From NCBI GenBank assembly GCA_027422505.1, contig JAPQWV010000298.1:310001-374000 (forward strand): a stretch of 64,000 nucleotides of DNA, given 5' to 3'. Below are positions 26,361 through 30,640 of this stretch, in pieces. Origin of the DNA: Craterostigma plantagineum. Its lineage: Eukaryota > Streptophyta > Magnoliopsida > Lamiales > Linderniaceae. Position 1 is the first letter of the stretch; each line of letters begins with the position of its first letter. Under the pieces are notes generated by a model. The model saw nothing but the letters and a program-made list of their open reading frames with translations, made no database searches and had not been told where the DNA came from. The translations under genes and the position numbers were made by a program.

Positions 26361-27530
26361 CGTTAGTTTTATCAGAAACTTATTAGTCAACAATTCTCAG
26401 CCGCAAAAACACCTCAACAAAATGGGGTCATTGAAAGGAAAAACAGAACCCTAGTGGAAGCTGCTCATACAATGCTGATCCATTCCGGCCTTCCACACTT
26501 TCTTTGGACTGAAGCAGTAAATACCGCCTATTTTGCCCAAAACAGGACGGTGGTTCACAAACGGTTCAACAAGACTCCGTACGAGATTGTAAATAAGAGA
26601 CTACCCAACATCTCATTCTTTAAAGTCTTCGGGTGCAAGTGCTTTGTGGCGAACGATAGAGAGCAACGTGCAAAGTTCGACCGTAAAGCATTCGAAGCAA
26701 CTTTCGTCGGGTATTCTTCAACATCAAAAGCGTAGTATACATCAAGTCCAACCACACGATTAAGGAAAGCTATAACGTCACTTTTCACGAGGTGAACGAA
26801 ATGGCTTCTGAACAAAACAGTTTAGGACCCGTGCTCAACCCTATGGCTTCTGAACAAAACAGTTCATGACCCGTGCTCAACCCAATGGCTTCTGAACAAA
26901 ACAGTTCAGGACCCGTGCTCAACCCGTTGGCTTCTGAAAACAACATCTCAGAACCCATATTCACTGGTGTGTTGGCACAAAACCAACAGGAGATGGCAAC
27001 AACTCAGCGATCACCGTCAGACGAAGCTCTAAGAGTTGTGATAGAATACTTGGATTCCCTCTTTGGGCCTCTACATCCGCCAGTCACTGTCAATCCTACA
27101 CACGACGTGGCTGATGCACCAAGTTCTTCAACTGTCCCTACCTCACCCGATTCAGATTTTCCACAGAACAATGAAGAACCTACCGTGGGTGTTGAGGAAG
27201 AATCATCAGAGTCACTCCCACTCAATACAGATTTGGAACTTCCTCACACGAATGAACAGTCGGAAGTCATTGGAATTCTAGGCCCACAAATGGTTGATGC
27301 ATCATCTTCAGCTTGCCGCATGAGCGCCGGTGGACTAGAGCTCACCCAGTTGATCAGATAGTTGGCGATCCTTCGAGTGGAGTAAGGACACGACATCAAC
27401 ACAGTCTTTCAGCTGCTTCTTAAGCAAAAACGAGCCTACTAAGGTAGCAGACGCACTACAAGACCTGGATTGGATAATTGCAATGTAAGAGGAAATCAAC
27501 CAATTCAAACGTCTTCAAGTGGGGAAATTA
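26361..27530 (+). pseudogene. Unit 2 integrase C-terminus and linker
   Basis: The end of the integrase core and its C-terminal domain are recognisable (NRTLVEAAHTMLIHSGLPHF, VNTAYFAQN, KTPYEIVNKR, FGCKCFVANDREQRAKFD). The catalytic Glu region reads GVIERKNRTL in a shifted frame. The variable linker before RT contains a 42-bp minisatellite (26801-26968). The frame is broken at 26735 and again at 27361. Confidence 0.82.
26801..26968 (+). repeat. 42-bp (14-residue) minisatellite in pol linker
   Basis: Units start at 26801, 26843, 26885 and, diverged, 26927. Each encodes a version of MASEQNSSGPVLNP. Unit 3 of element B has more degenerate versions at 35117-35230 (MASGHFSPGPVRNP and relatives), so the linker expands by in-frame tandem duplication. 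Confidence 0.85.
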
Positions 27531-28690
27531 GTTCCACGTCCGCTTGGGAAAACTATCATCGGGACGAAATGGGTATTTAAGAACAAAAAGAATGAAGATG
27601 GTGAAGTGATCCGGAACAAGGCACGATTAGTTGCAAAGGGATACAACCAAGAGGAAGGCATCGACTACGATGAAACATATGCCCCTGTTTCCCGGATTGA
27701 AGCCATTCGTCTCTTATTGGCTTACGCGGCTCATAAAGACTTCAAGGTATATCAAATGGACGTTAAAATCGCCTTTCTCAATGGCGTACTCAAAGAAGAA
27801 GTCTACGTCGCTCAGCCAGACGGCTTCGTTGATCAAGAACATCCCGATCACGTCTATCGGTTGGATAAAGCTCTATACGGACTAAAATAAGCCCCACGTG
27901 CTTGGCATGATGTCTTGAGTGAGTTCCTCGTAATGTCTAGATTTATTCGAGGAACAATCGGTACGACCCTCTTCATCAAATGGCAAGACAAGGATCTGAT
28001 GGTCGTCCAAGTTTACGTCGACGACATCAATTTCAGTTCAACAAATCCACGGTTGTGCAAGAAGTTTGGAAATCTCATGAAGAGTAAATTTGAAATGAGC
28101 CACATGGGAGAGATGCAATTCTTCCTAGGACTTCAAGTCAGGCAGCTCGATGATTGGAGATTTATCAGTCAACCAAAATACATTAAGGACATCCTGAAAA
28201 AGTTCCATCAAGATCAGAGCAAACCTCTCAGCACTCCCATGTCAACAAGCTGCAAGTTGGATGCCTATCCCATAGGAAAATCGGTCGACATCACACTCTA
28301 TCGCAGCATGATTGGATCTCTTCTCTACCTCACTTCTAGTCGGCCGGATATCATGTTTGCCACTTGTCTTTGTGCCCGTTTTCAAGCCGATCCCAAAGAA
28401 TCCCACATGCTCGCGGTGAAGCGTATTCTTCGCTACCTTAAGGGAACAACTACCTTAGGACTATGGTATCCTAAAGGTACGAACTTCAAACTTATCGGCT
28501 ATACTGATGCTGATTATGCATGTTGCCGAAAGGACAGGAAAAGAACCTCCAGCGGTGCTCAATTTCTAGGCGAAAAGCTAGTCTGCTGGTCATCCAAAAA
28601 AGCAAAATTGCGTCTCAACTTCGACGACTGAAGCTGAATACGTCGCAGCCGCAAGCTGTTGCTCCCAGATGCTATGGATGCGGACTCAGC
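27519..28690 (+). pseudogene. Unit 2 reverse transcriptase and RNase H
   Basis: The copia RT is nearly intact: IIGTKWVFKNK, ARLVAKGYNQ, YQMDVKIAFLNG (first catalytic Asp), YVDDINFSSTN (YVDD box), MGEMQFFLGLQV and LTSSRPDIMFATCLCA. RNase H continues through IGYTDADYACCRKDRKRTSS. A TAA at 27888 replaces a Gln codon (CAA in the inverted arm). The sequence leaves pol soon after the RNase H segment ending ...DYGYNLNNI and enters leader-like DNA at about 28715. It forms the left arm of the palindrome. Confidence 0.9.
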
Positions 28691-29149
28691 TTCGGGATTA
28701 TGGGTACAATTTAAATAATATACACATTCATTTTGACTTGTCGAGAAACTTACTAACGTACTGTTGCTTTACGATCGAAATAAATTCATCTGGAAATTTT
28801 TCTCGACCGAACGAGTTTGGGCAATTTATTTTGCTCGAAAAATATTTCGCTGACAGAATTTCTCGCACGAGAACAGTACACATTATATTCTATTTCGACG
28901 AAATTATTTTCGATCAAACTTTAAAGATTGAATCGAAAATAATTTCGTCGAAATAGAATATAATGTGTACTGTTCTCGTGCGAGAAATTCTGTCAGCGAA
29001 ATATTTTTCGAGCAAAATAAATTGCCCAAACTCGTTCGGTCGAGAAAAATTTCCAGATGAATTTATTTCGATCGTAAAGCAACTGTACGTTAGTCAGTTT
29101 CTCGACAAGTCAAAATGAATGTGTATATTATTTAAATTGTACCCATAAT

Positions 29150-30326
29150 CCCGAAGCTGAGTCCGCATCCATAGCATCTGGGAGCAACAGCTTGCGGCTG
29201 CGACGTATTCAGCTTCAGTCGTCGAAGTTGAGACGCAATTTTGCTTTTTTGGATGACCAGCAGACTAGCTTTTCGCCTAGAAATTGAGCACCGCTGGAGG
29301 TTCTTTTCCTGTCCTTTCGGCAACATGCATAATCAGCATCAGTATAGCCGATAAGTTTGAAGTTCGTACCTTTAGGATACCATAGTCCTAAGGTAGTTGT
29401 TCCCTTAAGGTAGCGAAGAATACGCTTCACCGCGAGCATGTGGGATTCTTTGGGATCGGCTTGAAAACGGGCACAAAGACAAGTGGCAAACATGATATCC
29501 GGCCGACTAGAAGTGAGGTAGAGAAGAGATCCAATCATGCTGCGATAGAGTGTGATGTCGACCGATTTTCCTATGGGATAGGCATCCAACTTGCAGCTTG
29601 TTGACATGGGAGTGCTGAGAGGTTTGCTCTGATCTTGATGGAACTTTTTCAGGATGTCCTTAATGTATTTTGGTTGACTGATAAATCTCCAATCATCGAG
29701 CTGCCTGACTTGAAGTCCTAGGAAGAATTGCATCTCTCCCATGTGGCTCATTTCAAATTTACTCTTCATGAGATTTCCAAACTTCTTGCACAACCGTGGA
29801 TTTGTTGAACTGAAATTGATGTCGTCGACGTAAACTTGGACGACCATCAGATCCTTGTCTTGCCATTTGATGAAAGGGTCGTACCGATTGTTCCTCGAAT
29901 AAATCTAGACATTACGAGGAACTCACTCAAGACATCATACCAAGCACGTGGGGCTTGTTTTAGTCCGTATAGAGCTTTATCCAACCGATAGACGTGATCG
30001 GGATGTTCTTGATCAACGAAGCCGTCTGGCTGAGCGACGTAGACTTCTTCTTTGAGTACGCCATTGAGAAAGGCGGTTTTAACGTCCATTTGATATACCT
30101 TGAAGTCTTTATGAGCCGCGTAAGCCAATAAGAGACGAATGGCTTCAATCCGGGAAACAGGGGCATATGTTTCATCGTAGTCGATGCCTTCCTGTTGGTT
30201 GTATCCCTTTGCAACTAATCGTGCCTTGTTCCGGATCACTTCACCATCTTCATTCTTTTTGTTCTTAAATACCCATTTCGTCCCGATGATAGTTTTCCCA
30301 AGCGGACGTGGAACTAATTTCCCCAC
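29150..30326 (-). pseudogene. Inverted copy of unit 2 RT/RNase H (right palindrome arm)
   Basis: On the minus strand, 30326-29847 encodes RT from GKLVPRPLGKTIIGTKWVF through YGLKQAPRAWYDVL with no stop, including the first catalytic Asp in YQMDVKTAFLNG. After a one-base deletion near 29877, a second frame (29847-29215) carries YVDDINFSSTN and RNase H. Apart from that frameshift this is the best preserved RT in the window. It lacks its own LTR, gag and integrase. Confidence 0.9.
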
Positions 30327-30640
30327 TTGAAGACGTTTGAATTGGTTGATTTCCTCTTACATTGCAATTATCCAATCCAGGTCTTGTAGTGCGTCTGCTA
30401 CCTTAGTAGGCTCGTTTTTGCTTAAGAAGCAGCTGAAAAGACTGTGTTGATGTCGTGTCCTTACTCCACTCGAAGGATCGCCAACTATCTGATCAACTGG
30501 GTGAGCTCTAGTCCACCGGCGCTCATGCGGCAAAGCTGAAGATGATGCATCAACCATTTGTGGGCCTAGAATTCCAATGACTTCCGACTGTTCATTCGTG
30601 TGAGGAAGTTCCAAATCTGTATTGAGTGGGAGTGACTCTG

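What the first reader, a model, noticed from the sequence alone, without database searches (positions are those of the whole stretch)
27207..30640. Young 1.7-kb-arm palindrome over RT/RNase H: a natural hairpin-RNA locus?
Seen: inverted arms 27207-28914 and 28932-30640 differ at only a few sites, with a 17-nt spacer, while the outer LTRs of the same element differ by roughly 12-13 percent. The inversion is therefore much younger than the element. Inference: a transcript crossing it from either side would fold into a very long dsRNA matching pol of units 2 and 3, elements C and D and any family relatives. Mu killer in maize is an established precedent, where an inverted derivative of a transposon silences its family through siRNAs.
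Basis: partly seen in the sequence, partly recalled or inferred. Interest (0 to 1): 0.85.

Follow-up and report, generated by a model that had tools for sequence, protein, structure and literature searches.

The report
Young fold-back palindrome in dead retrotransposon
In what looks like a plant chromosome, a long-dead copia retrotransposon carries a fresh 1.7-kb mirror-image copy of part of itself, apparently made when DNA copying folded back at a small hairpin already present in the element; whether it now makes silencing RNA is unknown.

Summary
The palindrome is real in the sequence: arms 27205-28914 and 28932-30642, 17-nt loop, 6 substitutions and 3 one-base gaps (1709 compared columns). 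It lies in a decayed, nested Ty1/copia element whose outer LTRs share a CAAGC target-site duplication and differ by 9.7%, not 12-13%. The left arm is native; the right arm is an inverted copy set into the 5' leader of the next unit. The centre falls on the leader's own hairpin: the homologous hairpin stands uninverted at 21551-21596, and the window holds three such hairpins, the palindrome's centre included. The far end of the copy re-enters the same hairpin through a GAT match and leaves a 35/35-nt direct repeat; leaving the insert out restores one continuous leader alignment. Both arms share a stop and a frameshift, so the copying most likely happened in chromosomal DNA after the element died. 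Best reading: hairpin-primed fold-back with template switch, a known kind. The RNA part is untested: no expression data were available, and 40 of 1690 arm 21-mers occur exactly elsewhere in the window. The own-genome search did not complete, so copies elsewhere and read support are unchecked.

The parts
27205..28914 (+). Left arm, native orientation: pol from the linker before RT through RNase H (to 28727), then 28728-28914, of which 28797 onward matches a 5' leader (28728-28796 found no match of its own)
   Evidence: collinear with unit 3 across the arm's outer edge (26842-28727 vs 35115-37000, 81%); RVT_2 on 27891-28628
28915..28931 (.). 17-nt loop, equivalent to the loop of the leader's hairpin
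28932..30642 (-). Right arm: inverted copy of the left arm
28910..28944 (+). Left copy of the 35-nt leader-hairpin direct repeat
   Evidence: 35/35 identical to 30673-30707
30673..30707 (+). Right copy of the 35-nt direct repeat, continuing into the leader and gag of unit 3
30643..30672 (+). Re-entry patch: partial extra copies of the same hairpin sequence, GAT shared with the end of the right arm
   Evidence: read by eye
21551..21596 (+). Uninverted homologous leader hairpin in unit 1 (14-bp stem), taken as the ancestral state of the palindrome centre
   Evidence: DNA fold -12.6 kcal/mol, z -3.75, 1 of 200 shuffles as good
20279..20628 (+). LTR A, 5' LTR of the outer element; 5' flank CAAGC; followed by TTGGTATCAGAGC, a primer-binding site (recognised from memory); TATAAATA at position 118
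58511..58861 (+). LTR D, 3' LTR of the outer element; preceded by a purine run; 3' flank CAAGC
30838..37000 (+). Unit 3: gag to RNase H of the following element; its pol is the closest in-window relative of the arms found

Best explanation
It is an inverted duplication made in chromosomal DNA by fold-back synthesis at a pre-existing hairpin. From sequence comparison: before the event, pol of unit 2 (cut off in RNase H) ran into the 5' leader of unit 3, which carried a hairpin of about 13-bp stem and 17-nt loop. Inferred: a strand being extended rightwards passed the hairpin, its 3' end snapped back on its own left stem and copied about 1.7 kb backwards to 27205; the end then returned to the original template at the same hairpin through a 3-nt match (GAT), slipped there once or twice, and went on into unit 3. 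The result is a near-perfect palindrome inserted with a 35-nt direct repeat of the hairpin. It happened after the element was disabled and is probably neutral debris; it could be a hairpin-RNA source only if a transcript crosses it, which is not shown.
For: The centre lies on the homologue of the uninverted leader hairpin at 21551-21596; the window has 3 inverted repeats with an exact stem of at least 13 bp and a loop up to 50 nt, one being the palindrome's own centre, against 1 seed in total in 20 single-base shuffles of the window. 35/35 direct repeat on both sides. Leaving out 28945-30707 gives one leader alignment of 296 columns, 76.7%, E 1.1e-49, against 2e-27 for each side alone. Re-entry at the same hairpin with GAT in common. 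Both arms share the pol/leader fusion at 28727/28728, one stop and one frameshift. Where unit 3 and the 14-kb copy agree, 56 substitutions are shared by both arms, 3 are private to the left, 0 to the right (unrooted, so some of the 56 may be changes of the other two). In yeast, foldback inversions form through single-strand hairpins and template switching is one proposed way to finish them (PMC7467729, passages).
Against: No allele or relative without the insert was available; the empty site rests on a paralogous leader at 77% identity, and 28728-28796 does not align to it. The re-entry patch could be an older tandem expansion of the leader. The right flank alone (30663-30718), lacking the left stem, folds no better than many shuffles (z -1.46, 16 of 200), so the ancestral hairpin is inferred, not present there as such. 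Arm-to-arm gene conversion could make the palindrome look younger: 7 of 9 differences lie in 27312-27971 and the longest clean gap is 780 bp, P 0.041 under uniform placement. Of 9 differences, 6 were polarised: 5 derived in the left, 1 in the right, two of the left ones on the length of unit 3 alone; 3 were not polarised.
Confidence: 0.75

Rival explanations
1. A natural hairpin-RNA silencing locus: a transcript across the loop folds into long dsRNA, is diced to siRNA and silences the copia family, as proposed for Mu killer. (This concerns what it does and does not exclude the fold-back origin.)
For: Nearly perfect 1.7-kb stem with 17-nt loop; LTR A keeps TATAAATA at the same position as the three other LTRs, 4 of 4; precedent in maize (PMC2725412 and PMC8224964, passages); hairpin regions of maize LTR retrotransposons have a reported 2.9-fold higher small-RNA density (PMC10760457, passages).
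Against: No expression or small-RNA data here; LTR A ends 6.6 kb upstream in a decayed element; 40 of 1690 arm 21-mers and 21 of 1687 24-mers occur exactly elsewhere in the window; no LTR match inside the stem; the Mu killer hairpin mechanism is disputed. Closer targets elsewhere in the genome are not excluded.
Confidence: 0.12
2. Assembly or sequencing foldback: a palindromic chimeric read was built into the contig.
For: Long reads do produce such foldbacks, which can tangle assemblies (PMC12870357, passages); two of the three arm indels are in short T runs.
Against: A foldback read returns along its own flank, whereas here the right arm leads into a different flank through a second junction with a short match. 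Of 6 polarised differences, 5 are derived in the left arm and 1 in the right, the partner arm keeping the state seen in relatives. The centre falls on a pre-existing hairpin, though that could also seed an in-vitro artefact.
Confidence: 0.07
3. The palindrome formed during reverse transcription (strand switching or self-priming on cDNA) and was inserted with the element.
For: Inverted cDNA products are known for retroelements, and plus-strand synthesis runs in the direction needed (both recalled).
Against: Arms differ 0.35% while the LTR pair of the host element differs 9.7%; both arms share a stop and a frameshift. It would need later homogenisation, or mobilisation of an already disabled copy.
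Confidence: 0.05
4. An older palindrome kept alike by gene conversion between the arms.
For: Uneven spread of differences, P 0.041.
Against: Weak statistic; nine unconverted differences remain.
Confidence: 0.1

Closest known systems
Foldback inversions / hairpin-mediated inverted duplications (yeast, human)
   Same: Short inverted sequence at the turn-around, a spacer between the arms, an inverted copy that starts at the stem, a second junction (passages of PMC7467729; abstract and passages of PMC3907307)
   Different: Here small (1.7 kb) and interstitial, with return to the original template at the same hairpin and no terminal deletion; the 21 sequenced human spacers were 766-70,466 bp, here 17 nt
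Mu killer of maize
   Same: Natural inverted duplication inside a transposon gene, arms of similar size (about 1.3 kb of mudrA)
   Different: A class II element with two copies of the promoter end TIRA; trans-silencing is shown by crosses, but the centre was not sequenced and the mechanism is disputed (abstract and passages of PMC3440606). Here a class I element, no LTR match in the stem, no activity shown
Ty1/copia LTR retrotransposons
   Same: Retrotran_gag_2, Pol_BBD, gag_pre-integrs, SH3_retrovirus, RVT_2 domains among pieces from the window; nearest named proteins from Cuscuta, 45% for gag, 67-68% for the RT/RNase H piece
   Different: Decayed, multi-unit, nested, with the palindrome

Membership tests
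Foldback (hairpin-mediated) inversion | Inverted copy separated by a short spacer | tested here: met
   17-nt loop
Foldback (hairpin-mediated) inversion | Pre-existing inverted repeat at the turn-around point | tested here: met
   Homologous uninverted hairpin at 21551-21596; shown in the paralogous leader, inferred for this one
Foldback (hairpin-mediated) inversion | Second junction by microhomology or template switch | tested here: met
   GAT in common, 35-nt direct repeat; 3 nt alone could be chance
Foldback (hairpin-mediated) inversion | Progenitor allele without the inverted copy | tested here: inconclusive
   Only the paralogous leader; own-genome search unanswered
Hairpin-RNA silencing locus (Mu killer type) | Transcribed inverted repeat | not testable with these tools
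   No RNA data
Hairpin-RNA silencing locus (Mu killer type) | siRNAs that silence homologous elements in trans | not testable with these tools
   No small-RNA data; exact matches to window relatives are few
Hairpin-RNA silencing locus (Mu killer type) | Stem includes the promoter-bearing terminal repeat (a feature of Mu killer, not of every hairpin-RNA locus) | tested here: not met
   LTR A found no match in the arms
Ty1/copia LTR retrotransposon | copia-type gag and RT, LTR pair with 5-bp target-site duplication | tested here: met

The most novel reading that the evidence does not exclude
The leader hairpin of this copia family is a recurrent seed: any dead copy can turn into a hairpin-RNA locus by fold-back at its own leader, so the family generates its own silencers, with fresh palindromes arising repeatedly in the host genome.
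Probability: 0.08. Interest if true: 0.75.

Novelty: new member of a known kind. Interest (0 to 1): 0.42.

Why it matters
Both junctions are readable, so it shows how a long natural inverted repeat of a retrotransposon can be born: from a small hairpin in the element's own leader. If such loci are transcribed they are candidate starting points for family-wide silencing, and this one looks young enough that plants with and without it might be found.

Tried and rejected
Retrotransposition-time origin: thought unlikely on the shared stop/frameshift and on LTR versus arm divergence. Foldback read: thought unlikely because of the two different flanks and the polarised private changes. I first took the 1.1-kb repeats at 21742-22830, 25265-26359 and 30838-31960 for LTRs; dropped, since the first encodes gag and the others match it; the LTRs are about 350 bp. 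Naming the host: not achieved. Three protein searches gave no close relative (14 hits, best 45%; the best 120 of 6833 and of 7984 are listed, the named ones nearly all plants, many rows unnamed, one named after a bacterium). No date in years is given, since host and rate are unknown. Literature: nine searches; palindrome + LTR retrotransposon + template switching + plant genome gave one paper, on a Drosophila inversion (listing only). I make no claim that nothing similar is in print.

Full report
Observation. The window holds a 3438-bp near-perfect palindrome. The left arm is 27205-28914, the loop 28915-28931 (17 nt) and the right arm 28932-30642. The arms differ by 6 substitutions and 3 one-base gaps, 0.35% substitutions over 1709 compared columns.

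Host element. Of 10 stop-to-stop pieces from the window scanned against Pfam, 1 has copia gag (Retrotran_gag_2), 2 have RVT_2 (one of them the arm piece 27891-28628, the other a different element at 49.7-50.7 kb), 4 have other copia pol domains (one of these also has RVT_2), 3 had no match, and 1 had only weak coiled-coil matches below cut-off. The nearest named proteins are from Cuscuta: 45% for gag, 67-68% for the RT/RNase H piece. The host is therefore probably a dicot plant; this is inference and the species is unknown. The outer LTRs are A 20279-20628 and D 58511-58861: both have CAAGC on the outside, A is followed by what I recognise from memory as a primer-binding site, D is preceded by a purine run, and they differ at 34 of 349 sites, 9.7%. 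That LTR and the one at 39.7-40.0 kb differ at 63 of 333 sites, 18.9%, with the end of the latter set by me.

Which arm is the copy. The left arm is collinear with the sequence to its left: one alignment to unit 3 runs through its outer edge (26842-28727 against 35115-37000, 81%). The right arm ends abruptly at 30642. So the right arm is the inverted copy.

The centre. The arms contain pol, cut off in RNase H at 28727, then 69 bases without a match of their own, then part of a 5' leader (28797-28944 matches 21448-21595, 79%). The centre falls on a hairpin of that leader. The homologous hairpin is present, uninverted, in unit 1 at 21551-21596 with a 14-bp stem. In 64 kb there are three places with an exact stem of 13 bp or more and a loop of up to 50 nt: this one, the palindrome centre, and one inside an unrelated inverted repeat near 7.9 kb. 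Twenty single-base shuffles of the window gave one such seed in total. The hairpin therefore most likely came before the palindrome. Against: the right flank alone, which lacks the left stem, does not fold notably well (z -1.46, 16 of 200 shuffles as good), so the hairpin of this leader before the event is inferred.

The far end. The right arm ends in GACTCTGAT and continues TGAATCGAAAATAATTC, the sequence of the same hairpin; GAT is common to both. Thirty bases of partial hairpin copies come first, then a complete 35-nt copy, 30673-30707, identical to 28910-28944 (35/35), then the leader runs on into gag of unit 3. If 28945-30707 is left out, the leader aligns to that of unit 1 as one piece (296 columns, 76.7%, E 1.1e-49), where each side alone gave 2e-27. 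The copying strand thus seems to have left and returned at the same hairpin.

Timing. Both arms share the pol/leader fusion, a stop shortly before the RT core and a frameshift in RNase H (read from the translations). Where unit 3 and the 14-kb copy agree, 56 substitutions are shared by both arms, 3 are private to the left and 0 to the right; against unit 3 alone 253 are shared, 3 left, 0 right, 1 ambiguous (unrooted, gaps left out). Of the 9 differences, 5 are derived in the left (27769, 27888 and 27906 on both relatives; the gaps at 27312 and 27406 on the length of unit 3 alone), 1 in the right (the gap at 27971), 1 is ambiguous (27651), and 2 in the leader (28751, 28762) had no relative to compare. 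So most decay came first and the inversion later, most likely in chromosomal DNA. Gene conversion between arms could hide some age: the longest gap between differences is 780 bp, P 0.041.

Mechanism. This is the anatomy of a hairpin-primed fold-back with a second template switch. In yeast, foldback inversions arise from single-strand hairpins; in strains proficient for Mre11 and Sae2 the loops were larger (median 36 nt; 15 nt or more is called large), and template switching is one of three proposed ways to extend the intermediate (PMC7467729, passages). Human inverted duplications show a spacer bounded by short inverted sequence, 766-70,466 bp in 21 sequenced junctions (PMC3907307, abstract and passages). 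This case is small, interstitial and returns to its starting point.

Function. The RNA idea is possible but untested. A transcript across the loop would fold on itself, and LTR A keeps the TATA motif found at the same position in 4 of 4 LTRs, but it ends 6.6 kb upstream in a decayed element. Of 1690 arm 21-mers, 40 occur exactly elsewhere in the window (21 of 1687 24-mers); 24 match unit 3 and 21 the 14-kb copy; with up to two mismatches 426 and 209. LTR A found no match in the arms. Any siRNA would thus hit the in-window relatives sparsely and not their promoters directly; closer relatives may exist elsewhere in the genome, which could not be searched. In its favour, hairpin regions of maize LTR retrotransposons are reported to have 2.9-fold higher small-RNA density (PMC10760457, passages). 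The cited precedent, Mu killer, is an inverted duplication of mudrA whose hairpin transcript is reported to yield small RNAs (PMC2725412 and PMC8224964, passages); another group could not bridge its centre and saw short antisense transcripts in silencing plants, while allowing that longer transcripts may contribute (PMC3440606, abstract and passages).

Artefact. Foldback reads are a known long-read problem (PMC12870357, passages). Against that here: two different flanks, a second junction with a short match, and private changes in both arms (5 and 1 of 6 polarised). Read data would settle it; none were available.

Noticed in passing
25233-26359: A gag fragment (25265-26359, 94.6% like 21742-22830) sits inside the integrase region, replacing about 315 bp relative to unit 3 (25251 matches 34384, 26358 matches 34699): a second copy-and-paste rearrangement in the same element.
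   Followed up: partly
7585-8131: Inverted repeat with arms of about 209 bp, 88% alike, 130 nt apart, with a small hairpin near 7915: looks like a fold-back or MITE-type element (guess).
   Followed up: no
1949-2490 and 18453-19002: Direct repeat of about 550 bp, 88% alike, not identified.
   Followed up: no
39712-47186: Minus-strand copia element with LTRs about 19% apart, lying between the outer LTRs; the 3' end of its left LTR departs from the other three.
   Followed up: partly
28727-28797: RNase H of one unit runs into the leader of the next, with loss of the 3' end and LTR between them; both arms carry this, so it came before the palindrome.
   Followed up: partly
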